From Verrucomicrobia bacterium ADurb.Bin006 (lineage in GTDB: Bacteria > Verrucomicrobiota > Verrucomicrobiia > Limisphaerales > J093): a DNA stretch of 64,000 nucleotides. Where the stretch lies: NCBI GenBank assembly GCA_002071485.1, contig MWFF01000055.1, forward strand, positions 1 to 64,000, written 5' to 3'. The translations under genes and the position numbers were made by a program. The notes beneath the pieces are model-generated. The model saw only the letters and a list, made by a program, of their open reading frames with translations, searched no databases and was not told the DNA's origin. Positions 28,227 to 57,828 of this stretch are shown piece after piece; the first letter of the stretch is position 1, and each line of letters starts with the position of its first letter.

Positions 28227-31200
28227 TTAGCGCGTGGCGCGGAAGTACAGCTCGGTTCCGGTCGGACTGACCTCGTACGGGCTGACGGCGCCGGTCACGT
28301 CCTGCCAGTTCGTCGGGCTGACCGACGACGATTGCTGCAGCTTGCCTTCGAAGGTCACCCGCACCTTGCCGTCAGCCAGCAGCGCGATGGAGACAGTGGG
28401 TTGGACCGCTGAAGGAACGTACGCCTTGACTGCGTGCGGATTGTTGCGGTCGTTGACGAGTATCTTGGTGTTATTCGGGCCGTAGGTGAAGAACTCGAGG
28501 TTCCCACCGCCGCCGCCCTGGTACCAGACCAGTCGGACTGGGTAGAAGCCGGCCTCGGGCGTGATGAAGGCGAACGGGATGTCGCGCGCTCCGGCGGCGC
28601 GGTCGCGGGAGAACAGGACGAGGCCGTCGGTCTGGCCGGGCATGCCGATCTGGACTTTCCAGCCGTCGTCGCCGTTGATACCGAACTTCTGGTAGCCGGC
28701 GGGCAATTCGAGGTACGCGCAGATTTCAGCGGTAATGTTCTCGAACCGCAGATTGCCGGAGAGGCCGGTGCCGGGGATGCCTGGGACAGGCTCGTCGGCC
28801 TGGCTTGTCATGAGCGTCTGGAAGTTGCCGATCTGGGCGGGCGTGCCGCCGGGATTCATGGTGACGTTCCAGTTGATGATGTCGGCGTCGATGTAGCTGC
28901 CGTCCGCTTCCGGTCCCGGGACAGCGACGCTGGCCGGGGTGCCGGCCAGTTGCGCCTCGGCAGCGGCGACGGTGTTGCCGCCCGGGCGCGCGGCGGAAGC
29001 CTGGGTGACCTTGACGCGGAAGCCCGGGGCATTGAGGTCGACGGCGGAGGCGGGGACAGCGGCGCTGGCGGGGACATTCACGTAATCGCTGACGGTGAAC
29101 GTCCAGTAATTGGTCGTGTTGGCATAGACCAGGCCGGCGGTGTGGGTGGACATGGGTGCCAGCGGCGGGTTGGGCACATACATCACCAACACATCCGTCG
29201 ACCCGCCGATCGGGGTGACGGTGGGGGTGACGCTGACGTCGTCCAGCACCATGCCGACGCTTCCGGCGCCGAGGTCCGCCACGATGGCGCCGATGGCATC
29301 GCCGAACGGCCAGTTGACCAGGGCCTGATTGAACCGCGGCTCGTCATTGGCGATGTCCACCGGATTGCCCGCGCCGACTTTGACGAGGATCGGACCCGGG
29401 CCGCTCTGTTGGTGAGTGTTTTGCCAGAGCGTCGCGTGGGTCGGCATCGGGTAGACGGAGAACTTGGTCCAAGGCCGGACCGGGCCTGTATAGGTGCTAT
29501 AGGCCTGAATCGGCGATTCGAGCGGGGCGACGGAGTTCGGATTGGCCGTTGTCGACGGATAGAGCCCAGTCACATCGTTGACGAGTATCTGGGTCCCGAA
29601 GTTGCGGTCGATGCTCAGGAACTCGAGGTTGATGCCGCCGCCGCCCTGCCAGAACAGGATGCGGAACGGGTAGATGCCGTCTTCGAGGACGAGCACGGTG
29701 AAGGCGCCGTTCGGGTTGTTGAGGGGGTTGCCGTTCTGGCCGCCCGGGGTATTGCGCCACCCCAGCAGGGTGCCGAGCGTGTCTTTCGGATTTGGCGCCG
29801 AGAGGCAGAGCCAGCCGTCATCGACATTCAGGCCGAGGATATGCACGCCCGCCTTGAGGTCGAGGTAGGTGGTGATCTCGTGGACGGTGTTGTCCAGCCC
29901 GATCGCCGTCGAACCGGAACTGCCGCCGCCGGGCACGCCAGGCACGGCGATGTCGGCATTGAAGATGCCGGCGTTCGCGGCCAGGCCACCCGATCCGGAA
30001 TTCCAGTTCAGCACGTCGCCCAACTCGTAGCCGCCGTCCGCTTCCGGGCCGGCAACGGCCAGGTTGGGATAGGGCATGTTGTTGGTGCGATTGATGTAGC
30101 CGTTGGCAAGTTGGATTTCCGGACGCGGCATATTCGCCGCTCCACCGTTTTGACCCGTGTAACGTCCACCGTTGCCCTGATTTGCGTCACGGGAGCGATC
30201 GATCTGATGGGCCCGCACGTGGAATCCCATGCCGCTGACATCCGAAGACGACACCTTGTTCGCGACCGGGATGGGGCGGGTGTAGGGTGGCACGCTGAAG
30301 GTCCAGGTGTTTGTCACCGTTTGGGCGGCGCCACCAATCGGTATGTGTTCATAGGTGAGAACTGCGGTCACGCTGCCCGAGGGGAGGAGATTCGCCATCG
30401 AACTCGAGCGCACTAGCGTGGTGACCTTGCCATCCTTGCTTTCGGTGATTGTCTGGGGCGTGCCGTTCAAGGTCAGCACCGCCGACCCAGCCTTGAGCGG
30501 CGAAGCGCCATCGGTCACATCGAGGACCAGATCCTGATCGGCAAACGACCAGAGGTATCCGATCGGCGGCAACGCGCGCGAGATGTAGGGCGGCGTGGCG
30601 GCGCTTTCGCGGTAAGCCTTGATGGGCTGCGGCGCCGTCAGATCGTTCACCAGCCACCGGACACCGTTGGAATCGACGAAGAAGAACTCGCAACTGGCGC
30701 CACCGCTCGTTTCGAAGTACATCAACCGGACGGGGTAGAAGCCATCCGCGGGGATGACGACGTCCATGAGCGAATCGATCGGGCTGCGGTCGCCTGCAGT
30801 GCCGAGCTGGACGCCGACGACGTCGCCGGGGCCGCGTCCGATGGACAGGCGGAAACCGTCGTCGCTGTTGACTCCAAAGCGGTAGCCGCCCGCCTTGAGT
30901 TCGAGGATGGTCTCGATCGAGGCGACGAAGCGATCGGTCGTATTCACGCCGGTATTGCCTGTGAGGCCCGGGATGCTCTGGTCCGTAAACCCGTTCGCCG
31001 ATGTGAAGTTCCCGACTGCGGTGGGGGCGTCCTGGTTCCAATTGATCACGCCTTCGGCCGTGAAGAAACCGTCGGCATCGGCCGACGCCAGCACATTGCC
31101 GAAGGTATCGAGCCAATCGGTGAGCGCGGTGTTGGAGAAGGGTTGGTCGGTGGAGGGATCGATGTAGCCGTTCGCGATCTGGCGCTCGGCATTGAGATAC

Positions 31201-32450
31201 TGGCCGGTCGCCGGATTGCGGTTCGGGTCCATCTGGTGGACTTTGATCTTGAACCCTGGTTTGGTCGTGTCCGCAGCCGGCAGGGCGTAGAAGGGATCGA
31301 TGGCCGTTGCGGTTCCGACCAGGGCGCTGTAGGTGAAGGAGTTGTTCAGCGCCGGCGTGCTGGTGGTCCTGTAGCCCACAATGATCGTGTTCACGCCGCC
31401 CGCCAGATAACCCGAGGCCGGCCGGTAGATGATTCGGGAGATGTCATTCACCTTGCTCAGAGTGGGCGTGACCGTCGTGCCGTTGACGGTCATAGTGACC
31501 GATCCCTCGGCGATCGTGTAGTCATAGTCCTTCATGTCGATCATGACGCCCGCCACGGGGCTGCCCGGGGCGCCTGTGGTGGCGTTCTGCAACGCCAGGG
31601 GCAGACACGACACCATGTGCGGCTGGCCCGAATTGGCGTCGAGCGGGAAGGTGGTGATCTTGAGGTTGTCGATCCAGTGGTTGTCGTAGGAACCGCCAGT
31701 GCGCGCGCCGAAGCCGAACCGCGCGCCTATCCCGCTGATCGGGAAGTCGGTGATGGCGCGGAAGATCGGGACATTGGTGTACACGATCTGGCCGTTGTAG
31801 GCGAGATCGAGCGTGCCATCCGTATCGACCCGTATTTTCACCGGCCAGTAGACCGGAGCGCCACCGGCGGTGGTCTGGGTGCGGATGGTTGTGGCGGAGC
31901 CGATCGGTTGGGCGCCTGTCGTGGTCGAGGCGGCTCCCACCAGGCGATGGAGTTGGATGACGTTGTTCCATTTGAGGTCGATGGCCGGCGCTTCGGCCGG
32001 TGTCCCGCCGTTGTTGTAAACGTCGAACGCGATCGTCAGGCCGTTGATGGTGCCCGGCCCTTCCTCAGAGTGGGCGGCATCGGCGAAATCGCCGAAGAAG
32101 AACGACATCCCGTCCGCCCCGTTGCCGCTGCCAATGTAGAGATCGAAGGTGACCTCGAATCCCCCGATGATCTCGCCATTGTCGAAATCATCGATGATCG
32201 CCCCGCCCTGCTGGCTGGCGGTCGCGTCGGTGAGCTTGAGGACGCCCGTGCCGCCTACGCCGCCGGTTGAATGGTCGTAATTGAATGCCGTTCCTTGGAG
32301 ATTGACGCCAATCGGGATGCCGTCGTTAAAGTCGGCGTTGAATGTGCCGGCCTGGCTGATGGCTCCTCCGGCCAGCAGCGCCAAGCCAGCAATGGCCAGG
32401 CCCCGGGACAGCAACCTCGGCTTTTTGAATCGATCGGGTATGGAGTTCAT
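28227..32450 (-). CDS. Large secreted protein with lectin-like domain and three PA14-like modules
   Basis: Start at 32450 gives MNSIPDRFKKP and a signal peptide (GLAIAGLALLAGGAISQA). The 1407 residues then show an L-type-lectin-like domain (about 35-290, GFEVTFDLYIGSG, YDNHWIDNLKITTF). Three repeated modules follow at about 467-600, 813-957 and 1190-1333, each with 'INWN...GNF', 'ELKAG...G.NSDDGF', 'GFYPVRL..' and 'CEFF..NG...LVND', i.e. PA14-like carbohydrate or surface-binding folds. The C-terminal FEGKLQQSSSVSPTNWQDVTG and ELYFRATR are the family-specific tail. It probably binds glycans or the cell surface. Confidence 0.75.
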   Translation of the reverse strand: MNSIPDRFKKPRLLSRGLAIAGLALLAGGAISQAGTFNADFNDGIPIGVNLQGTAFNYDHSTGGVGGTGVLKLTDATASQQGGAIIDDFDNGEIIGGFEVTFDLYIGSGNGADGMSFFFGDFADAAHSEEGPGTINGLTIAFDVYNNGGTPAEAPAIDLKWNNVIQLHRLVGAASTTTGAQPIGSATTIRTQTTAGGAPVYWPVKIRVDTDGTLDLAYNGQIVYTNVPIFRAITDFPISGIGARFGFGARTGGSYDNHWIDNLKITTFPLDANSGQPHMVSCLPLALQNATTGAPGSPVAGVMIDMKDYDYTIAEGSVTMTVNGTTVTPTLSKVNDISRIIYRPASGYLAGGVNTIIVGYRTTSTPALNNSFTYSALVGTATAIDPFYALPAADTTKPGFKIKVHQMDPNRNPATGQYLNAERQIANGYIDPSTDQPFSNTALTDWLDTFGNVLASADADGFFTAEGVINWNQDAPTAVGNFTSANGFTDQSIPGLTGNTGVNTTDRFVASIETILELKAGGYRFGVNSDDGFRLSIGRGPGDVVGVQLGTAGDRSPIDSLMDVVIPADGFYPVRLMYFETSGGASCEFFFVDSNGVRWLVNDLTAPQPIKAYRESAATPPYISRALPPIGYLWSFADQDLVLDVTDGASPLKAGSAVLTLNGTPQTITESKDGKVTTLVRSSSMANLLPSGSVTAVLTYEHIPIGGAAQTVTNTWTFSVPPYTRPIPVANKVSSSDVSGMGFHVRAHQIDRSRDANQGNGGRYTGQNGGAANMPRPEIQLANGYINRTNNMPYPNLAVAGPEADGGYELGDVLNWNSGSGGLAANAGIFNADIAVPGVPGGGSSGSTAIGLDNTVHEITTYLDLKAGVHILGLNVDDGWLCLSAPNPKDTLGTLLGWRNTPGGQNGNPLNNPNGAFTVLVLEDGIYPFRILFWQGGGGINLEFLSIDRNFGTQILVNDVTGLYPSTTANPNSVAPLESPIQAYSTYTGPVRPWTKFSVYPMPTHATLWQNTHQQSGPGPILVKVGAGNPVDIANDEPRFNQALVNWPFGDAIGAIVADLGAGSVGMVLDDVSVTPTVTPIGGSTDVLVMYVPNPPLAPMSTHTAGLVYANTTNYWTFTVSDYVNVPASAAVPASAVDLNAPGFRVKVTQASAARPGGNTVAAAEAQLAGTPASVAVPGPEADGSYIDADIINWNVTMNPGGTPAQIGNFQTLMTSQADEPVPGIPGTGLSGNLRFENITAEICAYLELPAGYQKFGINGDDGWKVQIGMPGQTDGLVLFSRDRAAGARDIPFAFITPEAGFYPVRLVWYQGGGGGNLEFFTYGPNNTKILVNDRNNPHAVKAYVPSAVQPTVSIALLADGKVRVTFEGKLQQSSSVSPTNWQDVTGAVSPYEVSPTGTELYFRATR

Positions 32451-32862
32451 GACGTGATTGGGGACAGATGCTCGAGACCGAGCATCGGGTTGTTTCCTCC
32501 GATTTAGGTTATGGGTACTTGTGAAGCCTCCGCCCATCGTCGCCCTCGATCCGTGTTCGCCGCGGACAACGGCACTCGGCAATCCAGGATCGCCAGGATC
32601 GGTTCAACGCTGTCGGGCTCAGGCGGCGGAAGTATGGGCAATTCCGAGCCGTTGTCAAGCCGCTCCAAATGAAAAGACCGTGCCCGGACAGCGCCAATTC
32701 ATAGAGTGGAGTCGCGACGCCGGGAAACACCGCCTTCACTTGACATGGCGGGCGACGAGCCTTCCTCCCCACTCGGTCCTTTTCCCTTTCATGAGTTGGC
32801 CCTGGCCGGACAGGCGCAGACTTGCCTCGATGGCATCCACGCTTTAGGGTCTGTACACCGCA
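32451..32862. other. Intergenic region with ISAs1-end copy and dispersed repeats
   Basis: No convincing gene. It includes the 24-nt copy of the ISAs1 3' end (32660-32683) and a TTAGGGTCTGTACA motif at 32844-32857 of the repeat family described at 34575. It lies between the PA14-like gene and the divergent GH5-like gene, so both promoters should be here. Confidence 0.5.
32660..32683 (+). repeat. 24-nt copy of the ISAs1 3' end
   Basis: CCGCTCCAAATGAAAAGACC plus GTGC matches 626-649, which covers the last codons and stop of the transposase. It is an IS-end scar with no transposase here. Confidence 0.6.
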
Positions 32863-45287: not shown

Positions 45288-46196
45288 TCAGCGGTTCAAC
45301 GGATCGTTCAGACCGTTCCAGTTGCCGTTGTCCCGTACGCCATCGCGGTTGGAGTCGTCAATTTCCTTGATCCCCATGGCCACGGCGTGGCAATCGACAA
45401 AAACGAACTCGGGCCTGCCGTTGTTGCGCGGGGCGGGATAGGCGCGCACCTTCCAGTCGTACGGACCGGGGCTGGGCGTTTCGATCACATCGTCGACGCC
45501 TTCGTAATATCCTGCAAGTTTTGCACCCAGATTCAGGGAAGGCAGCGGCGGCTCGAGCGCGTAAGGCGCCTCGGGCTTGCCGGTGAAAACACCACCTTTC
45601 GATTTCGAGCCGGCGGTATCCCCCACGAGCACCGTACTGGTCGGCTGGCGGATGTCGGCGTCCATCCGGGCGCTATATCCGGGCTTTCCATGCTCGCCGG
45701 TGGCATACCCCAGGTAGTGCAGGTTGTAACCGTAACCGCCGTAAATGAACTGCCGATACCCGTCAATGCCGAACGGCCGCGAAAAATTCGCACTGGCAAT
45801 TTGCTCGACAGTCAGAAATGGACTCAGGAACACCTTGGGTTGGGGCGCGTAGCGCACCATTTGGTCGGGCCAGTGAGTTTTGACCGATTTATCCAATCCC
45901 AAGTCCTTTCCATCCTGGCGGTCGATGATCGCCCCTTGGTAGTAATAGCCTTCGTGATGGGTAAAATACCCTGAGTTGTCGTCCAGATACATCTGATTGG
46001 CGATGCCGATTTGCCGCAGGTTGTTGAGGCTCGCTACACCCTTGGCGGCGTTTTTTGCACGACCCAGCGTGGGTAGCAGCAATGCCGCCAGGATGGCGAT
46101 AATGGCAATGACTACCAGCAGCTCGATCAAGGTAAAGCCCCGCAGCCGAAAGCGGCGACAGTCGGTTTGCGCAACGGTTACATCAATGGACTTCAT
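45288..46196 (-). CDS. Prepilin-type secreted protein
   Basis: 302 residues. After a 20-residue basic leader comes [20 protein letters not shown] and [20 protein letters not shown], as in verrucomicrobial type IV prepilin-like paralogues. The body has [19 protein letters not shown] and [20 protein letters not shown], i.e. the C-terminal H-x-DG-like region. It is the second paralogue of this kind in the window (first at 24776). Function as a pseudopilin is likely, but the partner system is not here. Confidence 0.8.
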
Positions 46197-46376
46197 GCCG
46201 ACCTTCTATTATTAGGTTCTATAACGTTTACGAATAGAATTTTGCTTTTTTCGACGTGTCTGGAGTGTGCCCGGACAGGTGGCCCTGGGCAAGGCGAAAG
46301 ACCGGGGGAATTGTCCCCTGCAAGTGCCTGGCTGGCCTTCCGGGGCTGGTGGGCGGCCGCCCCCAACTGGTTCACC

Positions 46377-46640
46377 GTGCCTGTGGGCCATATGCAGGTA
46401 GCCCAACTGCTACACGAGCAGCACTACAGTCTGCAGAGCAACCGGAAGCCGGCGGAGGGGGAGGACCACCCCGAGCGGGACGCCCAGTTCGCGCATATCA
46501 ACCGGTGCGTAAAGCGGGCCTTGGCGGCGGGTTACCCGGTCATCTCGGCGGACACCAAGAAGAAGGAACTGGTGAGCAATTACGCCAACGACGGTCAACA
46601 GTGGCGTGTGGCCAAGCAACCCCGAGCGGTCAAAGGGCAC
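46377..46640 (+). pseudogene. ISAzo13-family (Rhodopirellula-type) transposase fragment
   Basis: One frame reads MQVAQLLHEQHYSLQSNRKP, then HPERDAQFAHINRCVKRALA, PVISADTKKKELVSNYANDG and WRVAKQPRAV. This matches the middle of ISAzo13 transposases, including the 'VISxDTKKKELVGxYxNxG' block with its catalytic Asp. It is cut at about 46640, after which another frame (46606-46857) with no clear identity runs into a dispersed repeat. Both ends of the transposase are missing, so it is inactive. Confidence 0.7.
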
Positions 46641-46810
46641 GCCTTCCCGGGGCCGGGTCCGGTTCATCGTCGGGACGGAGGCGCGCGAGTGCCCGTTCGG
46701 CCCGTTGCCCAAAGGCGATTCGATCCTGGAAGCGGTCTGGTCCGAACTCGACCGCCTCGAGCGAGAGGATGCTGGCGGGTACACTTTTCTCCTTATCGAG
46801 GATTGTCCTC

Positions 46811-46875
46811 GGGCCTCGCATCTGGCCCGGTGGCGCTCCCGCCAAAACCGGAAGTAGTTTTTGCACGGGGCCTAA
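46811..46875 (-). repeat. Dispersed repeat 'TTAGGGTCCGTGCA', inverted copy
   Basis: Complement of the 34575 copy, identical over 43 nt. It ends the decayed ISAzo13 segment, which suggests that the repeat is an end of an IS or a MITE derived from one. Confidence 0.65.
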
Positions 46876-46986
46876 GCCGGCTGGAAGCCGGCGCTCCGGG
46901 ATGCCTCACGCACTGTCGAACAGGCTCGTGCCCGTGCAGCTTACTGCCTAGTCGGCTAGATATCCTGCACAGACCCCTCACGCCGG

Positions 46987-47036
46987 CCCTCTCCCACCTG
47001 CCTGCCGAAGCCTGGGCGCAGGCAGGCGGGAGAGGG
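46987..47036 (-). terminator. Long hairpin after the giant protein gene
   Basis: CCCTCTCCC (46987-46995) pairs with GGGAGAGGG (47028-47036), with an inner CCTGCCTGC/GCAGGCAGG stem. It is about 65 nt downstream of the minus-strand stop at 47101. The CCCTCTCCC...GGGAGAGGG pattern is common among intergenic hairpins of many bacteria, so it may be repeat-derived. Confidence 0.55.
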
Positions 47037-47100
47037 TGCCCCGCTCTGCGAGGCGGGTGAGAGTGCCGGTGGAGTGCATCTCGCTGATTCCTCAGTGTAC

Positions 47101-50100
47101 TTATTTCCGAAGTTGCAACTGGAGGAAGCCGTGCACGCCGTTCTTCATGGGCGTGAGGCTGCGGACCGTGACCTCGACGTAGTTGCCGCGGTCGACGGGC
47201 GTCCCGACCGTTGCGACCGCCGACGCGCCCGTCCAAGGCACCACGGCGGACGAACTCGTCACGCGGTATTGCAGATCGCTCGGCTCGGGCTTGGGTCGGC
47301 GATAGGTCAGCGTGAGGTAAGTCTCGCCGGCCAACCGCACCATGCCGGCCTTGGGGGCCACGGATGGCCAGTCAGCGACTTTGGGATTCGACGCTAGACC
47401 GTACTCGCCCAGGTTCGGGAGACCGTCGTTGTCGGGGTCATCCTCCGGGTTGGCGGCGTTGGGCGGCAACCCCTGGGAAGCGGCCCAAGCCGTGTATGTG
47501 ATGCCTCCGGCGAAGGTTGTGACAGCGTCGGCCTCGGCCGGGGCGGCCTCGGTGTTGCCGGCGGCATCGCGCGCGATCGTGTAGAAACGATACGTTGAAC
47601 CGGGCTCTCCCTCGAAGAACGCACTCGTTGCCGTGGTGGCCCCGATCTGGAGCTGGAACGGTCCGCCGTTGCGCGAGATGAAGAGGTCGTAGCTCTGGAG
47701 GCCTGACCCGCCCGCGGCGTCCTGGCCAGCCCAACTGAGAGTAACGGGGCCGGAGGATTGAGCCGGCAGCGGTTCGATCTGGCTGAGGGGCGCCGTTGCG
47801 TCGATCGTGTTCGTGACCGTCGGGGTCAGGATCGGCGGGTTGGCGCCGTAGGTGGGGTCGAAGATGATGGTCGCCTGGTTGCGAATCTTCGCGCCGTCCG
47901 AGAGCGTAAGCTTCGGTCGAACGGTATACGTGAGCAGGCCCTCGCCGCGATGCTGGGCGTCGTTGGGCGGCAGGAAACCGGCAAACGGGTCCTCGGGCAG
48001 ATCGCCTGTGTTCGCGTCGCGTGAACGCATCAGCCAGGTGATCTTGCCGGTGGTTGAGTCGAAGCTGACGTCGACAGTCACCTCGTTGGTGTCCGAACCG
48101 ACCGAGGCGGTGGTCGAGTAGCGTTGCAATCCGGGCGGCACGGTGATGGTGGCGTCGTTGAACGCGATTGTCTTCAGCTCGAAGGTCGACCAATCGAGGT
48201 TGGCATCGAGCGTGTCGGTGACCAGGACTTCCTGAGCCGGGGCGGCGGCGGTGGGCTTGTTCTCGAACAGGACCTCGAACGGGATGACGTGGTTGGGGTC
48301 AATCCAGTGCTCGGGGCCGACGCCAGCCAGGGTGTATTTGTCGTTCGGATCGACACTGCCGACGATGGCGTAGGGCACGATCGGGAAAATGCTCGGGAAG
48401 GGACTGTTGCGCAAGGCGTTGCGCAGTAGCTGCTCGAAGCCTGAGGGATCGTTCCACGGTTTGCCGTCCAGGCTGGCGCCCGACGGATTGGTCAGGACCG
48501 GCTGTTGACGGTTCTTTTCTTTGGGCTCGTTCTCGTATTTCTTGGTGACCATGTCGGTGGTAAGTTCCATCGCGCGTCCGAGGCTGCGGCACTTGCGGAG
48601 CTGTCCCTTGAGGTTCTTGATCAAGTTGCCGCCGCTGGCGGTGTCCCAGGAGATTTTGTTCGCCTGGGTTGCCGCGAAGCCGACGAAGGTGGTGTTGGCC
48701 GGATTGATCTTCTCGTTGAACGCCTCGGAGTGGCACGAATCGTTGAGGAAGTAGGTCGTTCCGGCTCCGACCTCGTCGATAGCCTGAGTGAAGGCGACCG
48801 GGGACAAGTAGTCGCCATTGAAGCACAGGTAGGGTGCTCCACTCTTCCACTTGAGGCCCCCGTGACCGCAAAAGACGATGACCAGGTTATCGTCGGCGTC
48901 CACCTTGCCCTTAAGCTCGCGAATTCCGTCGAGCATGGTCGAGCGGCGCACGGCCTGGTCGTCCCCCGGCATGTCGTGTGCCCAAAGGTACTGGCCCTCA
49001 GGGACTCGCAACTCCGTGTTTGCATAGTCCCAAAGATCGCGGGCGTCTTTGCGTGTTCCCGGAAGGTTCGTCGTGGGGAGGTAGGTGTAATCCTCGACCG
49101 TGATCACCAGCCACCATGTCTTGCGGATGCCGTCTCCGCGCGGTGCGCCGGGCGGGTTGTGCAGTCCCGGGCTCAAGCCCGGTTCTTCGTAGTCCTCAGG
49201 CACGAGGATGAGCGGCCGTTCGGCGGAGACGCCCTCGGGCTCGTTGCCGAAGAGCCAACGGCCATCGATGTTGGCAAGGTAACTAAACCGCAGTTCGCTC
49301 GCCGCGAGCCCTTCGAGGTCGCGATCGAGCAGGACGGAGTACTCGGCCGGCGTGGCGCCGAGGCGGTCGTCGAGTCCGTTGACCATGGCGGCCCAGGCGG
49401 CCGGGTTGGCGCCCGGCGTCGCCGGGAGCCTGCCCCAATTGAAGGGAGTCGCGTTCGAGGCGAACGCTTCGCCGGTTATCATCTCGAGGTTGACCGTCCC
49501 GGAGTTCATCGCCTTGACGCGCACCTCGAAGGTGACCTCCTGACCCGGGCCGAGGGTTGGGAGCAAGGCCTCGGGGTTGATGCCCCAGAATGTGAAGGAA
49601 TCGGCCCAGTTCAGCGTGCTCTCGTACAGGTTGATCTCGGTGGCCCTCGGCGCGTTGAACTTGAGGAGCGGCGCCTTCATGTCGACCAGGCCACGGTTGC
49701 CGTACGTCACGAACCATGTCATGAACCGTCCGGCGCGGGTGGTGCCCGGCCCGCTCAGAGACGTGTAGAAGTCGGGCGTGCCGCCAGCCACGACCTCGAC
49801 GGCCTCGGGCAGGACGACTTCGAGTCCGCCGGCCTCGGCCACCAGGTCCGCCTTGCCAGGCGCGAGATCCGTCAGATCGAACGTCGCAAAGACGCGTCCG
49901 CTCTCGCGAACGCTCTGTCGGACGGCGAGGCGTTCGTCGTTGTCGACGCGAACGAGGAACGCGGTGTTGGTCGTAAGTGCGGAGCCCCGGATATCGAGGG
50001 TGACCAGGCTGGCATTGCCGACCCTTTGAGGCCAGGCGGCCTCGATGCTGAAAGCGGCGCTCGATGCGCTGAGTGCGAAGGCCTGGGGCGTCGCCGACAG

Positions 50101-53100
50101 CGTTCTGCCGATCGCCAGCACGTAGAAAACGTTCATGCCGTCGGTGGTGGTCGCGTCCGCCGCGCCGGAGACGACGGCGCTGGTGTCGGCGGAACTCCAC
50201 TCGCGCTGGCGCGCGCTGTAGTCTTCGGCGGTGGGCATGAAACCGCGTCCCACATACAGCTCGGTGACGCCTTGGGAGCCGAGCAGGCCGAGGTCGAAGC
50301 GGACGTCTTTTCCGACTGGGGCCGTGCACTGGAACCAGTGCGGTTCCTCCTGGGCGCTGAAGGCGCTCGTGACCGAGGCGCCGTCGAGGGCAATGACCGG
50401 CAAAGTGAGCGAGGAGGCGAGGGCGGCGTCGCCCTCGTTGTTGCTCGAGTTTGCGCCTTCGAAGATGTCGCCCCGGCTGTTGGCAACGACGACCCAGGTG
50501 TAATCGCCGGCCACACCGCCCGGCACGCGGACGTCGACGCCGACAAGTTGCCTCTGGCCCGGGCCGAGCGTGAGGTTGCGTCCGACGAGCGGTTCGCCGA
50601 CGGCGATGCGTCGGCCGGTCGCGTCATTGCGCAGGTAGATCGCGTCGTGCCATGGCCCGGTGAAGGCCTCCGTGCCGCGATTGGCGATCGTCCACTCGAT
50701 ATGGACGAGGCTGCCCGCCTCGAGATGGCCTGGCCCGCTGACGCCGATCACAACCAGATCGAGGTTCGAAGGCGCAGTCTCGGCAAACTCGAAGGCGCCC
50801 ATGTCCGGAATGGCGCCGTTGGCGGCAGCGATGCCGGTGTTGCCCGTGCGCGGGTCGTCGTAGCGCGGTGTCCCGGCGGCGTCGGTCTCGGGCGCAAACG
50901 TTCCATCGGCGGCATCGATGCCCGGCGAGGTGTAGTCCAGGCGGTAGTTGTCCGCCACGGCGTTCTTGTACTTGGGCGCGGCGGAGATGTTGCCGTCGAC
51001 GCCGGTGCGATCGCTGGTACCGCTGTAGTTGCCGCGCGAGGCCTCGGGGTTCCAGACGTTGCAGAAGGTGACGGTGGGACTGTAGCCGCCGAGATCGTGC
51101 TCGATGCCGGCCTGGATGCTGCCCGAGACGATCGAGTTGCGGACGATGAGATGGCCGACATGTTCGAGCAGGCCGATCTTGTTGGCATCGAGCGTGCAGT
51201 TGATGATCGTCATCTCGCCCACGGCGGTGAGCCCGCGATCGCAGCGCAGCACAACACAATTCTCGAAGCGGGTCGTCCCGTAGCAGAAGGCGCCGTCCTT
51301 GAGGGCGTCGGCGATGACGCAATTGCGCGCGATGAACGGTCCGCCCAAGGTTTCGATGGCGCCGCCGGCACCCGAGGGGGTGCCGACCGAATTGCCGCCG
51401 TAGAGGATGCGCGTGTGGTTCAGATCGCCTTGGGCACCATCTTCGAGGTGCAGGCTTCGCCAGTCGCCCGCCGCGGGGCCGGTGTGGGTGCCGTCTTCGT
51501 TCGTGTCGCCACCGTAGGCGTCGTCGGAGATGGATGTAAACACCACCGGCTGCGACACCGTGCCGCGGGCGATGAGCTTGCCGCCGGATTGGACATCGAG
51601 GCCGATGCCATGGTGGAACTTCACGATGGCGCCGGCTTCGAGGGTGAGGGTTGCACCGGCGGGCACGACGATCGTCGTCGTGATTTCGCGGAGGCTGTCG
51701 GCGGTCCATGTCTCGCTGCCGGCGAGGGGGCCGCCATAGATCCGACTGTTGAAGCGGAACCGGGTGTGGTCGTTGGATTCGATGGTGGCGCCAGTGCGCA
51801 GCGCCAAACGCCATGAGCCAGGCGTTGGTTTCGAAAGATCGCCGTCCAGATTGCTATCGCCACCTTCCGAATCGTCGAGGAACGAAGTCAGCACACAGGG
51901 CTCGAGTTCGTCGCCCAGCGCATTCAAGACGCCGCCGCTGAGGATCGACAGGCGGACGCCTGGCAGGAACTTGACGATGGTGCCCGGATTCAACGTGAGC
52001 TCGAGGCCGGACGCAATGGTCAGGTCTCGATCCACGACGTGGACGCGTCCGGGTGCCCAGACCTCCGAGGCGGCAAGGGGGCCGCCGTGCCATTCGACGG
52101 CGTTGTTGACCGTGATCGAGCGCCTCGACTCGACAACCGTGACGCCCGCGGCGGTCCTGATCGCCACGTGCAGTTCCCAGGCGCCATCGGCCACCCGGGT
52201 CGTGTCCCACGCGGCCTTTGCGGTGAGCCCGGCCGGCACGGTGCCGATGGCTGTGGAGACACCGTTCTGCCAGGCGCTGAAATCCGCCGTCAGCGGTCCG
52301 GTCTCGCCAGTCAAGGTCGCAACCTCCAACGCGATGGTGCCGAAGGCCCACTGGTCGCCCGGCGCCATCCAGAGCACCGAAGGCGCCGTACTCTCGTAGA
52401 TGGTGCCGTTTTCGCCTCGGGCGAACCCGCCTGCTCCGTTCGCGGCGAGAGCGCCGGTGAAGGTGCTGGTCGTTCGGTAGAGCGCGATGCGCCCGCCGCT
52501 GCCGCCGCCGCCATCCACCCATTGTCCCGCCCCGCCATTTGCCGCGATCGAGCCGGCGCCGGACAGCGCGCGCGTGCTGACAAAGACGCTCCCGCCCGAA
52601 CCGCCGCCCGAACGGCTGGCCGTGCCATTCAGTCCGTTTGCGGTGATCGAGCCGTCGACGGTCAGGGTGCCACCGACGACAAACCGGACTGCGCCACCGC
52701 CGTGACCGCCCGCGCCACCGCTGCCACTGCCGCCTTGACTGCCCCGCAGCGTCGGTTCGAGCTGTGATCCGTACGTCGGCCCGCCGGGCAGACCCGTCCG
52801 GCTTGTTCCGCCGACGCCGCCATGACCGGCGCCGCTGCCGGCATAACTCGACTGCCCGCCGGCGCCCGGCCCGGGATCGACACCGACCGGGAAACCGCGT
52901 CCATCGGTATTGACCGCGCCCGAGATCGTGGCGTCGCCAGCGACGACGACCTTGAGGCCGTCTTGCTCTTTGAGGTGCGTCAAGACGGTGTTTGTTTCCA
53001 CCACGAGGCTGCTGAGTGTCAGATCGGGATCGCCGATGACCTGAGCGCGCCGCGCAAGAGTCAGATCGAACGGTTCCTCACAGGCCAGCGGGGTGTAAGC

Positions 53101-56100
53101 CCCCCAGGTGTCGGCGTTGTCGATCAAGACGCGCCCTGTCGTTTCGCCGGCGAATCTCGCATAGATCGTCCCCGCTCCGCCGGCTTGGCGTCCCGGCGCT
53201 CCTCCTCGGGCGCTGACTGTTCCCGTAAATTCATCGGCCCCGAGGTAGAAGGCGATTCGTCCGCCGCCGCCGCTGCCCCCATCCACCCACTCGCCCTTGC
53301 CACCGATGGCGGACACGGCACCTGCGCCGGCGAGTTTTTCGGCGGTGATCCAGATGCTGCCGCCGGCCGCGCCTCCCTGGTTGTCGTACCAGGAGGAAGT
53401 CCCGTTGGCCGAGAGGGTGCCATCCAACTCGAGGGTGCCGCCCACGACCAGGCGGATCGCCCCGCCGCCGGGGCTGCGCGCGCCGGTTCCGCCGCCGCTC
53501 GAACCCAGATGCACCGGCTCGATGACAGAGCCGTAGGCAAGACCCCCTGCGGCACCAGAAAGGCTCACGCCGCCGTTGCCGCCGTGCGCGCCGCCGCCGC
53601 CGCAACAGCCGAGCGATTCACCCGCCCCGGGGCCGGGGTCGCCCTCCAGTGGGTAGCCCTTGCCGTCGGCGGTGATCGCCGCCCCGCTTTCCACTGAAAG
53701 GTCTCCAGCCACATGGACCGTGAGATTCGATTGGCCGGTGATGTGCGTAAGCGTGGCCCCCGACTTGAGGAGCAGGCTGACCAGCTCGAGCGGACCGGTG
53801 GGGTAAAAGACCGAGCCCCCGCCGAGGACAAGGCGCGTGTTCGCCGGGACGTCGAACGGACTCAAGGCCCCTGCATTGCCGCCGTTGTCCAAGACCAACT
53901 CGCCTGTCGCCTGTCCAGTCAGCTTGGTGTAGATGCTGCCCGAGCCGCCGCGCTGGTGCCCTCCGCCGCCTCGCGCCGCCAGGTCACCGCTGAATGCCAC
54001 CGCATCGGCGTAGAGCGCGATCCGCCCGCCGGCGCCGCCGCCCCCATCCACCCACTCGCCCGCGCCGCCGTCAGCGAGGATGGCGCCTTTGCCGGCAATG
54101 GTCTTGGCCGTGAGATAAAGGCTGCCGCCGGCCCCGCCACCGCTATTGTTACTGACGCCGTTCAGGCCTTGGGCCGTCACCCGACCATCAATCGTGAGAA
54201 GGTTGGCGACATTCAAGCGCACCACGCCGCCGCCCGCGCCGCCCGCGCCGCCGTCGCCGGGACCGCCTGCGCTCCCATGCTCGAGAGGCTCGGTGATCGA
54301 GCCGTAAGGCGCGCCACCCGCGGCGCCCAAAATGGTTGTTCCACCGGTGCCGCCGTGGCCGGCGCCGCTGCCGCCCCAATCCAGGCGCACCCCTGCCCCC
54401 GGGCCGAGGTTGCCATCGATGGGATAGCCGCGTCCGTCTGTCGAAATGCTGCCGCCTTCGGCCACAGTGAGGTTGTTGAGGACCGTGATCTCGCATCGGG
54501 CCTGACCGGTGAGATGGGTGAGCACGGCGTTGGTCCGCACTTCAAAGTCGCGGACCGTGAGCGGTTCGGCATGGTAGCAATAGGCCATCTCGGCCAGGGT
54601 AAGCTGGAACGGCTCGGGCGACGTCAGCGGGGTGTAGTTGCCCCTGACACCGCCGTTGCTGATGAGGAGTTGACCGAAGGCCGAGCCGCGCTTGCGAGTG
54701 TAAACGGTGCCCGCTCCGCCCCGCTGGTGTCCTCCATTTCCGAACGCAGTGATGATGCCGGCGAACTCGTTGAAATCGTAGTATAGGGCAATGCGTCCGC
54801 CGCCACCGCCGCCCCCATCCACCCATTCGCCCGGACCGCCATTCGCCGTAATGCGGCCTGTGCCGGCCAGCTTGGCCACGGTGAGCCAAACGCTGCCGCC
54901 GGCGCCGCCGCCGGCGTTGTTGGGAGGGTTCGCGGCGCCGTTGGCGTTCAGGGCGCCATCGACTCTGAGAGTGCCATCCACGATCAGGCGGATCGCGCCG
55001 CCGCCGGCCGTGCCTGGGCCGCCGTCGGCATCGCCTCCCTGGCTGCCAAGAAGCGTCGGTTCGAGCATCGATCCGTAGTGGATCGTCGGTCCCGCGCTGC
55101 TCCCGCTCCAGCCGCCCAGACCACCGTGGCTCCCCCCTGAACCACCCCAACTCACCCGGATGCCCGTGCCGGGTCCGCGGTCTTTGCCGATCGGATAACC
55201 GCGCCCCTCGACCGACAGGGCGGAATTAGTGCCGACGATCAGGTCGCCGACGACGTGGAGGGTGACGTTCGACTGCCCGGTCAGGTGTGTCAGGACGGCT
55301 TCGCCGGGCAATTCGAGGCGCGTGAAAATGAGAGCGCTCTCGGGGTACAACCATGCGCGTCCGGTGAGAGTCGCACGCAGCGCTTCGGGTGTTTGAAGCG
55401 GTGTGTAGGTGCCCCAGGTGCCGCCATTGTCGACGAGCAGGTGGCCTTGGGACTCGACGGCGCCCTTGGTGTATATGGTCCCGGCCCCGCCGCGTTCATG
55501 GCCGCTCGCGCCGTACGCCGTGATCGCGCCCGAGTAATCCCTGCTCGTGTAATAGAGCGCAATGCGCCCGCCCCCGCCGCCACCACCGTCCACCCACTCG
55601 CCCGCGCCGCCGTTGGCGGAGATCGTTCCGGCGCCAGACAGTGAACCGACGGTCAGCCAAATGCTGCCGCCCGACCCGCCGCCGGCGTTATCCGGCGGCG
55701 CCCCGGCGCCGTTGGCCGACAGGCGCCCGTCCAGGGTCAGTGTGCCGTCCACGATCAGGCGTATCGCGCCGCCGCCGGCTGTGCCTGGGCCGCCGCTGCC
55801 ATCGCCTCCCTGGCTGCCCAGGGCCGTGGGTTCGAGCAAGGAACCGTAGTAGCTGCCACCGACTGCTCCGCTGCCACTGCGACCGCCCAAGCCGGCGTGG
55901 CCGCCGCCGGACCCGCCCCAACTGTAACGCGAACCGGCGCCTGGGCCGCGGTCTTCACCGATGGGATAGCCGCGTCCATCGACGGTGAACTGGGCGGGCG
56001 CGGCGATAGAGGCGTTGCCGGTGACGCGCATGTGGATGTTGGACTGGCCCTGCAGATGCGTGAGGACGGCCTCATTGGGCATGGTGAATTGGGTGACCGT

Positions 56101-57828
56101 GAGCGCCTCGACTGGATAGCAGACAGCCCGCCTGGAAATCGTGAGATCGAATGCTTCCGGAGTGGCAATCGGGGTGTAGTTGCCCCAGGCGTTGTCGTTG
56201 TCGACAAGCAAGTGTCCCACCGGATTGGCTGTGCGTTTGACGTAGATTGTGCCTGCGCCCCCCCTTTGCGAGCCGCCGGCTCCGTACGCCGTGAGAGTCC
56301 CTGTGAACTGGTTGAGACTCGAGTAAAGCGCGATGCGCCCGCCCCCGCCCCCGCCGCCGTCCACCCACTCGCCCGCGCCGCCGTTGGCCACGATTGTCCC
56401 CCCTCCAGTCAAGGAACCGGCGTTGACCCAAATACTGCCACCCGAGCCGCCGCCGGCATTGTTGGCGCGGTTGTCAATGCCGTTGGCTGAGAGCCGGCCG
56501 GCCACATCCAGCGTTCCTGCAACAATGAGCCGAATCGCGCCGCCACCGGACGAGCCCGGCCCGCCGTCTCCATCGCCGCCTTGGCTGCCCAGGGCGGTCG
56601 GCTGCAAAATCGAGCCGTAGTGCGATCCCCCAGCATAACCGCTTTTGCTGTTCCCCCCCAGGCCGCCGTGACCGGCACCCGACCCCGCCCAGATGCCAAG
56701 CTGGCCCGCGCCCGGACCCGGATCGCCGGCAAAGGGATAACCGCGTCCGTCCACGTTGATTCCGGCGTCTGCCCCGATCGAGACATTGCCCGAGGCGCTG
56801 ACGGTCAATCCCGCGCTCCCGGCAGAATGGGTCAGCATCGAATTGCCGGCAACGCTCAGCGTGCCGACCGTGAGGTTCGCCGTCGCATACGCAATCGCGT
56901 TTCCATCCAACTCGACGTCGAATGCCACCGGCGAGGTCAGTGGCGTCCATTCGCCGCGTCCAGTGTTGACAATCCGCAACTGACCCTGCGTCGTCCCCTG
57001 CTTGAGGTAAATCGTCCCCGCCCCGCCAAAGCCTGCACCGCCGCTGCCGATGGCCGAGAGGGTGCCCGCAAACTGATTGCTCGCAAAAAGGAGCGCCATG
57101 CGGCCCCCTGCCCCACCGCCGCCGTCCGTCCACTCGCCTCTGCCGCCGTTGACGGAGATCGTGCCGGCCCCGGCCAGCGTGCCCGCCTTCAGGTAGACCG
57201 TCCCGCCCGCGCCACCACCCTGGTTGTTGATCCAGGCATTTGCGCCATCGGCCCGAACGGCGCCATCAACGGTGAGTGTTTCACCAACCTCGATATGGAT
57301 CAGGCCGCCGCCCGGAACGAACGCGCCTGTGCTGTCGCTGTTGCCGCCGGGGCCGCCCCACGTGTCGGGCGCCACGATCGAACCGAACGGCATGCCGCCC
57401 AGTCCGGGCGTCCCGTTGCTGCGATGTCCATGCCCGCCATGCCCGCCGCCGCCGCCGGCGTAATTGCCTTTGGCCCCTGCGCCGGGTGAATCGGCTTGGG
57501 CATAGCCCTTGCCGGTCGCATCAATCCGTGAAGTCGCATCCACCGTCACATTGCCCGTCACGATGAGGCGCACGGCACGCTCGGGTTGGCCCGCGGCGGC
57601 CGGCTCATGGGTCAGGACCGCACTGTTGGCAAGCTGCAGGCTGGAAAAGGTGTGAGGCCCCTCGACCGTCAGCGTCGCGTGGTCAACCACAATGGCCTGT
57701 CCGTCGAGCCACATGTCGCCTGCGGCAATGAAGGTGTCGGTTGCGATTGTGATTTGGGCCAGGCCCGCGGGCGCTGTTGTCCACAACCAGAGCGAGCCGA
57801 GGAGGGAGAGGGATAGGGTTCTTTTCAT
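47101..57828 (-). CDS. Giant secreted Gly-rich repeat protein with caspase-like domain
   Basis: 3575 residues; start at 57828 gives a signal peptide (MKRTLSLSLLGSLWLWTTAP). Seven Gly-rich modules of about 255 residues fill residues 30-1800, each with 'GRGYP...GPGAG', 'GG...GG.HGG.GG' and 'GEWVDGGGGGGGRIALY' text. Next come right-handed beta-helix segments (about 1950-2280), a CARDB-like domain near 2360, and a caspase-like domain (about 2900-3125) with GHGG (His2989) and NDSCHSE (Cys3032), plus NLPGTRKDARDLWDYA as in C14 peptidases. C-terminal Ig/DUF11-like domains (GSVDPNDKY, YGANPPILTPTVTNT) and the family tail complete it. It is likely surface or secreted; adhesion and processing are inferred. 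Confidence 0.85.
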   Translation of the reverse strand: MKRTLSLSLLGSLWLWTTAPAGLAQITIATDTFIAAGDMWLDGQAIVVDHATLTVEGPHTFSSLQLANSAVLTHEPAAAGQPERAVRLIVTGNVTVDATSRIDATGKGYAQADSPGAGAKGNYAGGGGGHGGHGHRSNGTPGLGGMPFGSIVAPDTWGGPGGNSDSTGAFVPGGGLIHIEVGETLTVDGAVRADGANAWINNQGGGAGGTVYLKAGTLAGAGTISVNGGRGEWTDGGGGAGGRMALLFASNQFAGTLSAIGSGGAGFGGAGTIYLKQGTTQGQLRIVNTGRGEWTPLTSPVAFDVELDGNAIAYATANLTVGTLSVAGNSMLTHSAGSAGLTVSASGNVSIGADAGINVDGRGYPFAGDPGPGAGQLGIWAGSGAGHGGLGGNSKSGYAGGSHYGSILQPTALGSQGGDGDGGPGSSGGGAIRLIVAGTLDVAGRLSANGIDNRANNAGGGSGGSIWVNAGSLTGGGTIVANGGAGEWVDGGGGGGGRIALYSSLNQFTGTLTAYGAGGSQRGGAGTIYVKRTANPVGHLLVDNDNAWGNYTPIATPEAFDLTISRRAVCYPVEALTVTQFTMPNEAVLTHLQGQSNIHMRVTGNASIAAPAQFTVDGRGYPIGEDRGPGAGSRYSWGGSGGGHAGLGGRSGSGAVGGSYYGSLLEPTALGSQGGDGSGGPGTAGGGAIRLIVDGTLTLDGRLSANGAGAPPDNAGGGSGGSIWLTVGSLSGAGTISANGGAGEWVDGGGGGGGRIALYYTSRDYSGAITAYGASGHERGGAGTIYTKGAVESQGHLLVDNGGTWGTYTPLQTPEALRATLTGRAWLYPESALIFTRLELPGEAVLTHLTGQSNVTLHVVGDLIVGTNSALSVEGRGYPIGKDRGPGTGIRVSWGGSGGSHGGLGGWSGSSAGPTIHYGSMLEPTLLGSQGGDADGGPGTAGGGAIRLIVDGTLRVDGALNANGAANPPNNAGGGAGGSVWLTVAKLAGTGRITANGGPGEWVDGGGGGGGRIALYYDFNEFAGIITAFGNGGHQRGGAGTVYTRKRGSAFGQLLISNGGVRGNYTPLTSPEPFQLTLAEMAYCYHAEPLTVRDFEVRTNAVLTHLTGQARCEITVLNNLTVAEGGSISTDGRGYPIDGNLGPGAGVRLDWGGSGAGHGGTGGTTILGAAGGAPYGSITEPLEHGSAGGPGDGGAGGAGGGVVRLNVANLLTIDGRVTAQGLNGVSNNSGGGAGGSLYLTAKTIAGKGAILADGGAGEWVDGGGGAGGRIALYADAVAFSGDLAARGGGGHQRGGSGSIYTKLTGQATGELVLDNGGNAGALSPFDVPANTRLVLGGGSVFYPTGPLELVSLLLKSGATLTHITGQSNLTVHVAGDLSVESGAAITADGKGYPLEGDPGPGAGESLGCCGGGGAHGGNGGVSLSGAAGGLAYGSVIEPVHLGSSGGGTGARSPGGGAIRLVVGGTLELDGTLSANGTSSWYDNQGGAAGGSIWITAEKLAGAGAVSAIGGKGEWVDGGSGGGGRIAFYLGADEFTGTVSARGGAPGRQAGGAGTIYARFAGETTGRVLIDNADTWGAYTPLACEEPFDLTLARRAQVIGDPDLTLSSLVVETNTVLTHLKEQDGLKVVVAGDATISGAVNTDGRGFPVGVDPGPGAGGQSSYAGSGAGHGGVGGTSRTGLPGGPTYGSQLEPTLRGSQGGSGSGGAGGHGGGAVRFVVGGTLTVDGSITANGLNGTASRSGGGSGGSVFVSTRALSGAGSIAANGGAGQWVDGGGGSGGRIALYRTTSTFTGALAANGAGGFARGENGTIYESTAPSVLWMAPGDQWAFGTIALEVATLTGETGPLTADFSAWQNGVSTAIGTVPAGLTAKAAWDTTRVADGAWELHVAIRTAAGVTVVESRRSITVNNAVEWHGGPLAASEVWAPGRVHVVDRDLTIASGLELTLNPGTIVKFLPGVRLSILSGGVLNALGDELEPCVLTSFLDDSEGGDSNLDGDLSKPTPGSWRLALRTGATIESNDHTRFRFNSRIYGGPLAGSETWTADSLREITTTIVVPAGATLTLEAGAIVKFHHGIGLDVQSGGKLIARGTVSQPVVFTSISDDAYGGDTNEDGTHTGPAAGDWRSLHLEDGAQGDLNHTRILYGGNSVGTPSGAGGAIETLGGPFIARNCVIADALKDGAFCYGTTRFENCVVLRCDRGLTAVGEMTIINCTLDANKIGLLEHVGHLIVRNSIVSGSIQAGIEHDLGGYSPTVTFCNVWNPEASRGNYSGTSDRTGVDGNISAAPKYKNAVADNYRLDYTSPGIDAADGTFAPETDAAGTPRYDDPRTGNTGIAAANGAIPDMGAFEFAETAPSNLDLVVIGVSGPGHLEAGSLVHIEWTIANRGTEAFTGPWHDAIYLRNDATGRRIAVGEPLVGRNLTLGPGQRQLVGVDVRVPGGVAGDYTWVVVANSRGDIFEGANSSNNEGDAALASSLTLPVIALDGASVTSAFSAQEEPHWFQCTAPVGKDVRFDLGLLGSQGVTELYVGRGFMPTAEDYSARQREWSSADTSAVVSGAADATTTDGMNVFYVLAIGRTLSATPQAFALSASSAAFSIEAAWPQRVGNASLVTLDIRGSALTTNTAFLVRVDNDERLAVRQSVRESGRVFATFDLTDLAPGKADLVAEAGGLEVVLPEAVEVVAGGTPDFYTSLSGPGTTRAGRFMTWFVTYGNRGLVDMKAPLLKFNAPRATEINLYESTLNWADSFTFWGINPEALLPTLGPGQEVTFEVRVKAMNSGTVNLEMITGEAFASNATPFNWGRLPATPGANPAAWAAMVNGLDDRLGATPAEYSVLLDRDLEGLAASELRFSYLANIDGRWLFGNEPEGVSAERPLILVPEDYEEPGLSPGLHNPPGAPRGDGIRKTWWLVITVEDYTYLPTTNLPGTRKDARDLWDYANTELRVPEGQYLWAHDMPGDDQAVRRSTMLDGIRELKGKVDADDNLVIVFCGHGGLKWKSGAPYLCFNGDYLSPVAFTQAIDEVGAGTTYFLNDSCHSEAFNEKINPANTTFVGFAATQANKISWDTASGGNLIKNLKGQLRKCRSLGRAMELTTDMVTKKYENEPKEKNRQQPVLTNPSGASLDGKPWNDPSGFEQLLRNALRNSPFPSIFPIVPYAIVGSVDPNDKYTLAGVGPEHWIDPNHVIPFEVLFENKPTAAAPAQEVLVTDTLDANLDWSTFELKTIAFNDATITVPPGLQRYSTTASVGSDTNEVTVDVSFDSTTGKITWLMRSRDANTGDLPEDPFAGFLPPNDAQHRGEGLLTYTVRPKLTLSDGAKIRNQATIIFDPTYGANPPILTPTVTNTIDATAPLSQIEPLPAQSSGPVTLSWAGQDAAGGSGLQSYDLFISRNGGPFQLQIGATTATSAFFEGEPGSTYRFYTIARDAAGNTEAAPAEADAVTTFAGGITYTAWAASQGLPPNAANPEDDPDNDGLPNLGEYGLASNPKVADWPSVAPKAGMVRLAGETYLTLTYRRPKPEPSDLQYRVTSSSAVVPWTGASAVATVGTPVDRGNYVEVTVRSLTPMKNGVHGFLQLQLRK
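52490..57130. repeat. Seven tandem Gly-rich modules within the giant protein
   Basis: On the plus strand a near-constant block (CGCCGCC...TCCACCCA) recurs near 52510, 53275, 54045, 54805, 55573, 56345 and 57110, a period of about 765 nt (255 residues). Protein similarity between units is clear, while the DNA differs, so the expansion is not recent. Confidence 0.8.

What the first reader, a model, noticed from the sequence alone, without database searches (positions are those of the whole stretch)
47101..57828. 3575-residue secreted protein joins seven Gly-rich modules to a caspase-like domain
Seen: signal peptide, seven ~255-residue Gly-rich units, beta-helix and CARDB-like parts, then a C14-like domain with GHGG (His2989) and DSCHS (Cys3032) 43 residues apart, the spacing of caspases. 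Established: C14 metacaspases use this His-Cys dyad. Inference: a giant surface fibre that carries its own protease, which might cleave itself or neighbouring proteins. This combination is uncommon.
Basis: partly seen in the sequence, partly recalled or inferred. Interest (0 to 1): 0.7.

Follow-up and report, generated by a model that had tools for sequence, protein, structure and literature searches.

The report
Swappable caspase in giant secreted protein
An uncultured Verrucomicrobia bacterium encodes a 3,575-residue secreted protein with a stiff glycine-rich stalk that carries a caspase-like protease in a slot which related proteins fill with RHS repeats or other modules, suggesting a swappable set of tools worn outside the cell.

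Summary
One intact 3,575-aa ORF (window 47101-57828, minus strand) has a signal peptide, seven 257-aa Gly-rich units, a beta-helix/CARDB core, and a domain with His2989 and Cys3032.

The domain is a C14-type caspase. Homologues reach Pfam Peptidase_C14 (2.4e-17). The family profile finds metacaspase-4 in the PDB (6.6e-11). AlphaFold (pLDDT 87) gives a caspase-hemoglobinase fold. The dyad is conserved in every full-length homologue, and an Asp pair aligned with the metacaspase S1 pocket predicts cleavage after Arg/Lys.

The Gly units fold confidently (pLDDT 95) as a beta-solenoid with no Pfam family.

The new result is the setting. Related giant proteins in Pedosphaerales share the chassis on both sides (residues ~1865-2826 and 3155-3440) but fill the gap with RHS repeats (8 proteins), carboxypeptidase-regulatory arrays (5), or other content (7). 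The caspase therefore looks like exchangeable cargo, comparable to polymorphic-toxin cargo, but internal and with no conserved immunity neighbour.

I favour a displayed extracellular protease (0.45) over self-processing (0.35). Activity, localisation and substrate are not shown. This is a new variant of a known kind.

The parts
47101..57828 (-). whole gene, 3,575-aa secreted protein
   Evidence: same architecture in L026, L067, L028, L035, L034, L065
57757..57828 (-). signal peptide, residues 1-24 (by eye)
   Evidence: same start in G001 homologue
52375..57756 (-). seven Gly-rich units of about 257 aa (residues 25-1818), predicted beta-solenoid
   Evidence: AF2 of units 3-4 pLDDT 95.2; no Pfam family
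50773..52374 (-). Ig-like stretch, beta-helix and choice-of-anchor Q region, residues 1819-2352
   Evidence: weak Pfam/NCBIfam hits; conserved in homologues
49351..50772 (-). chassis core, residues 2353-2826: CARDB-like plus other domains, probably beta-sandwich
   Evidence: CARDB 0.0025; shared with caspase-less relatives
48367..49350 (-). exchangeable slot, residues 2827-3154
   Evidence: occupied by RHS or CarboxypepD_reg arrays in relatives
48394..49143 (-). caspase-like (C14) domain, residues 2896-3145
48862..48864 (-). catalytic His2989
   Evidence: invariant in A1; aligns with the GHG of metacaspase-4
48733..48735 (-). catalytic Cys3032
   Evidence: invariant in the nine full-length sequences of A2; aligns with metacaspase-4 DSC
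49045..49047 (-). Asp2928, predicted acidic S1 pocket residue
   Evidence: invariant in A2; aligned with the GCVND Asp of metacaspase-4
48739..48741 (-). Asp3030, predicted acidic S1 pocket residue
   Evidence: invariant in A2; Asn in L065
47794..48366 (-). DUF7619, residues 3155-3345
   Evidence: Pfam PF24595 9.2e-14
47509..47793 (-). Ig/Fn3-like domain, residues 3346-3440
   Evidence: conserved in chassis relatives
47104..47508 (-). C-terminal domain, residues 3441-3575, role unknown (anchor or sorting suspected)
   Evidence: replaced in L032 and L033; no close paralogue in own genome

Best explanation
The gene encodes a secreted modular giant protein. A signal peptide exports it (inferred). 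Seven Gly-rich units form a long beta-solenoid stalk (predicted). A chassis of CARDB-like and other domains upstream, with DUF7619 and an Ig-like domain downstream, holds one exchangeable cargo in a fixed internal slot (shown by comparison of relatives). Here the cargo is a single-chain C14 cysteine protease of the metacaspase/orthocaspase type with an intact His-Cys dyad and an acidic pocket, predicted to cut after Arg or Lys (inferred). It most likely works as a displayed extracellular protease acting on proteins outside the cell, and is not a releasing peptidase for a downstream toxin, because no separate toxin follows it.
For: C14 by Pfam in homologues L032 (2.4e-17) and L035 (1.5e-12). 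Family profile matches metacaspase-4 6w8s at 6.6e-11 with His, Cys and both Asp residues in register. AF2 model pLDDT 86.7; Foldseek best hits MALT1 3.5e-10 and metacaspase 7qp1 6.8e-10. Dyad invariant in the window and eight homologues at 32-85% identity to it. Purifying selection on the domain: omega 0.24 and 0.08. Slot evidence: L108, L110, L111, L113 and L114 match the window protein on both sides (for L108, 320-2826 and 3158-3453) but not in between; RHS_repeat at 4e-49 to 3e-81 in the slots of eight proteins, CarboxypepD_reg in five; none of them has the caspase. One genome can hold several cargo types: G001 has the caspase protein plus four RHS-type proteins (L118, L120, L122, L128).
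Against: No expression, localisation or activity data. The slot survey covers a sample chosen by DUF7619 similarity, and six proteins have short slots with no recognised cargo. No conserved neighbour, so no sign of an immunity protein. Orthocaspases are reported to process themselves when expressed (PMC5756287), so self-cleavage is also expected. One homologue (L065) has Asn at the Asp3030 position.
Confidence: 0.45

Rival explanations
1. Self-processing domain: the caspase cuts its own chain in a linker, releasing the stalk or the C-terminal part from the cell, perhaps after export or on a signal.
For: Caspase-like domains in large bacterial surface proteins and polymorphic toxins are proposed autoprocessing peptidases, typically internal (PMC3482391). 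Orthocaspases autoprocess when expressed (PMC5756287). The domain is internal here, and RHS cores, which occupy the same slot in relatives, are known self-cleaving shells (own knowledge).
Against: No distinct toxin follows the domain; DUF7619 and the Ig-like domain are common to all cargo types. The model has only about 15 residues between Cys3032 and the next strand, so there is no long p20-p10 linker to cut.
Confidence: 0.35
2. Proteolytically weak or silent domain used as a peptide-binding or structural module.
For: Some caspase repeats in large proteins lack catalytic residues (PMC3482391); L065 carries a change two residues before the catalytic Cys.
Against: His and Cys are invariant in all full-length homologues and the domain is under purifying selection.
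Confidence: 0.12
3. The domain is a C13 legumain/GPI8-like peptidase or transamidase and not C14.
For: Top VIA-align rows are legumain (Z 21.0) and the GPI-transamidase subunit (Z 20.4); His-Cys spacing is similar (own knowledge).
Against: Pfam C13 0.022, below cut-off, against C14 2.4e-17 in the same homologue; PDB sequence-profile hits are metacaspases; metacaspase-4 (Z 20.2) is tied with legumain.
Confidence: 0.08

Closest known systems
Peptidase family C14B: prokaryotic caspase homologues (orthocaspases) and metacaspases
   Same: Fold, His-Cys dyad, acidic pocket Asp pair, sequence-profile match to plant metacaspase-4
   Different: Extracellular by prediction, embedded in a 3,575-aa protein with a solenoid stalk; no long p20-p10 linker; acidic calcium loop of metacaspase-4 appears absent in the alignment
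Caspase-like releasing or toxin domains of polymorphic toxin systems (Zhang et al. 2012, PMC3482391)
   Same: Secreted modular giant, interchangeable cargo, RHS repeats in sister proteins
   Different: Cargo is internal, followed by DUF7619 and an Ig-like domain; no conserved immunity gene; no separate toxin after the caspase
Beta-solenoid adhesins of two-partner secretion (EtpA, HMW1)
   Same: VIA-align Z 11.7 for EtpA over 165 residues of one Gly unit
   Different: Foldseek finds nothing below E 0.1; 25% glycine; no Pfam hit of any kind to the units; not claimed as a member

Membership tests
Peptidase C14 (caspase/metacaspase/orthocaspase) | caspase-hemoglobinase fold | tested here: met
   AF2 pLDDT 86.7; Foldseek E 3.5e-10 to MALT1, 6.8e-10 to metacaspase 7qp1; VIA Z 19-20 to metacaspases and caspases
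Peptidase C14 (caspase/metacaspase/orthocaspase) | conserved His-Cys dyad | tested here: met
   invariant in the nine full-length sequences of A2
Peptidase C14 (caspase/metacaspase/orthocaspase) | sequence-profile membership above the curated cut-off | tested here: inconclusive
   not reached by the window domain itself; reached by homologues L032 and L035; family profile matches metacaspase-4
C14B metacaspase/orthocaspase type | two Asp residues of the S1 pocket (basic P1) | tested here: met
   Asp2928 and Asp3030 invariant in A2 and in register with metacaspase-4; conserved acidic pocket in orthocaspases (PMC6426788); L065 is an exception
Metacaspase (calcium-dependent) | calcium-binding acidic residues and calcium activation | tested here: inconclusive
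   acidic loop after the catalytic His of metacaspase-4 is not aligned in this family; p10 site not examined
Peptidase C14 (caspase/metacaspase/orthocaspase) | proteolytic activity | not testable with these tools
   no bench data
Peptidase C13 (legumain/GPI8) | sequence-profile membership | tested here: not met
   E 0.022 and below cut-off in L032, where C14 scores 2.4e-17
Polymorphic toxin system | interchangeable cargo on a conserved carrier | tested here: met
Polymorphic toxin system | toxin domain at the extreme C-terminus | tested here: not met
   cargo is followed by DUF7619, Ig-like and C-terminal domains
Polymorphic toxin system | adjacent immunity gene | tested here: not met
   no neighbour shared between the loci compared, except within a genus and between the close pair G010/G013

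The most novel reading that the evidence does not exclude
Pedosphaerales carry a distinct polymorphic secreted-protein system in which the variable cargo (RHS shell with variable tail, carboxypeptidase-regulatory array with variable tail, or caspase) sits in an internal slot held on both sides by the chassis, in many cases on a glycine-rich solenoid stalk, and works without an immunity gene, with the caspase as an extracellular effector.
Probability: 0.3. Interest if true: 0.7.

Novelty: new variant of a known kind. Interest (0 to 1): 0.52.

Why it matters
Prokaryotic caspase homologues are mostly discussed as intracellular stress or death proteases, and a metagenome survey found few or none in Verrucomicrobia (PMC4933709). 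A family that is exported on a giant stalk and occupies a slot used by RHS cargo elsewhere would tie caspases to extracellular competition, predation or surface remodelling. It also gives a clear test: the same chassis with and without the protease exists in related species.

Tried and rejected
C13 (legumain/GPI8) membership was my first lead from GHGG and the spacing; Pfam and the PDB profile search favour C14. A conserved operon partner or immunity gene: none beyond the genus, or the close pair G010/G013. A second copy in the own genome: none, though one unrelated C14 gene exists. Plasmid-borne relatives: none. The 1,103-aa plus-strand ORF at 48505-51816 is taken as a GC-rich antisense shadow; the matching frame is broken in the sister species. 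The C-terminal domain as a genome-wide sorting tag: no close paralogues in the own genome. Searching the Gly unit by sequence gave no credible family; the hit to a focal-adhesion-kinase/linker/paxillin fusion at 8.5e-4 was judged a linker artefact. The springtail antifreeze (polyproline-II bundle) row, Z 5.4, is too weak to claim polyglycine-II bundles. The G010 copy is split by frameshifts, probably indel errors in that MAG.

Full report
Observation. The ORF at 47101-57828 (minus strand) encodes 3,575 residues from the ATG at 57828. It starts with a signal-peptide-like stretch that is conserved at the same Met in the sister species G001/L026. Residues 25-1818 are seven copies of a 257-residue unit, 25% glycine, 40-64% identical to each other. 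His2989 lies in GHGG and Cys3032 in DSCHS. The only domain above its Pfam cut-off in this protein is DUF7619 at about 3160 onwards; CARDB and beta-helix are below cut-off here but above it in a relative of the same build.

The protease domain. Pfam finds nothing in the window's own domain, but the homologues L032 and L035 hit Peptidase_C14 at 2.4e-17 and 1.5e-12. A profile of nine family members matches plant metacaspase-4 in the PDB at 6.6e-11, with the His, the Cys and two Asp residues in register. Those two Asp (2928, 3030) correspond to the acidic pocket that gives orthocaspases and metacaspases their Arg/Lys preference (PMC6426788). The AlphaFold model (pLDDT 86.7) matches MALT1, metacaspases and caspases by Foldseek, and legumain, GPI transamidase, metacaspases and caspases about equally by VIA-align. 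The dyad is invariant in all full-length homologues. One homologue, L065, has Asn in place of Asp3030. Rates of change indicate purifying selection (omega 0.24 and 0.08). About 15 residues separate Cys3032 from the next strand, so the enzyme probably works as a single chain (inference).

Distribution. The window lies in a MAG whose close relatives in the named collection are Verrucomicrobia, one labelled Pedosphaerales. Strong copies of this caspase family occur in 11 of 320 genomes of the order (12 loci). In a 387-genome phylum sample only one weak further match appears, and there is none on plasmids. Most copies have Gly units plus the core plus caspase plus DUF7619. L032 (G005) has a cohesin domain in place of the Gly units, and L033 (G066) has WD40 repeats. 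The number of Gly units varies between five and seven among full-length copies. No neighbouring gene is shared between the loci compared, except within the genus and between the close pair G010 and G013.

The Gly units. They are a separate, commoner family: 16 of 58 relatives have them, including giants such as a 14,210-aa open frame in G004. No Pfam family covers them. Two adjacent units model at pLDDT 95.2 as all-beta. Foldseek gives only weak hits, led by beta-helix adhesins; VIA-align gives Z 11.7 to the EtpA secretion domain over 165 residues. I read this as a beta-solenoid stalk; the exact Gly-rich geometry is unresolved.

The slot. Searching with the flanks of the caspase revealed relatives without it. 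L108 (4,134 aa) matches the window protein over 320-2826 (34%) and 3158-3453 (49%), but its 1,105-residue insert between them is unrelated. Pfam shows carboxypeptidase-regulatory arrays in L108, L110, L113, L114 and L119, each followed by a variable, mostly helical-looking stretch (seen by eye). RHS repeats fill the same place in L112, L131, L120, L122, L118, L126, L128 and L129. L111 has other content, and six proteins have short inserts of about 265-310 residues with nothing recognised. None of these carries the caspase. One genome can carry several types: G001 holds the caspase protein and four RHS-type proteins. So the caspase occupies an exchangeable internal slot.

Mechanism. Shown: fold family, dyad conservation, chassis and slot comparison. 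Inferred: export, stalk, Arg/Lys specificity, activity. Zhang et al. 2012 (PMC3482391) argue that internal caspase-like domains upstream of a toxin are releasing peptidases, whereas terminal ones may be toxins. Here nothing toxin-like follows the domain; what follows is common to every cargo type. I therefore favour cargo (displayed protease) at 0.45 over self-processing at 0.35. The two are not exclusive.

Novelty. Caspase-like domains in large secreted bacterial proteins, and extracellular prokaryotic metacaspases, are known (PMC3482391; PMC3501461). The specific combination and the two-sided slot shared with RHS cargo were not found in the papers searched, which is limited evidence. I rate it a new variant of a known kind.

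Limits. The genomes compared are mostly draft MAGs, the slot survey is a convenience sample, and no step of the mechanism has bench support.

Noticed in passing
L132 / G004:C78 (14,210-aa open frame); L134 / G024:C44 (10,043 aa): Very large open frames in Pedosphaerales that carry chassis core copies and DUF7619; the G004 one also has many Gly units.
   Followed up: partly
window 46167-47060 (+): ISAZ013-type transposase remnant (Pfam 7e-27) right beside the 3' end of the giant gene; not found at the sister species' locus.
   Followed up: no
window 3047-4714 (-): 555-aa ORF with RHS repeats above the Pfam cut-off, on the same contig as the caspase giant.
   Followed up: no
G000:C146:268-885 (+): A second, unrelated Peptidase_C14 gene in the same genome (585-aa frame, E 1.1e-10).
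   Followed up: no
window 28227-32582 (-): 1,451-aa ORF with weak L-type lectin, GLEYA and PA14 hits, another probable secreted adhesin.
   Followed up: no
window 48505-51816 (+): 1,103-aa open frame antisense to the giant gene; taken as a GC-bias shadow, interrupted in the sister species.
   Followed up: partly
L065 (G111:C38): Caspase homologue with NNSCHS in place of NDSCHS: pocket Asp replaced by Asn with the dyad kept, so specificity may differ.
   Followed up: no
L121, L123, L130, L132, L133, L134: Chassis proteins whose slot is only about 265-310 residues and has no recognised domain.
   Followed up: no
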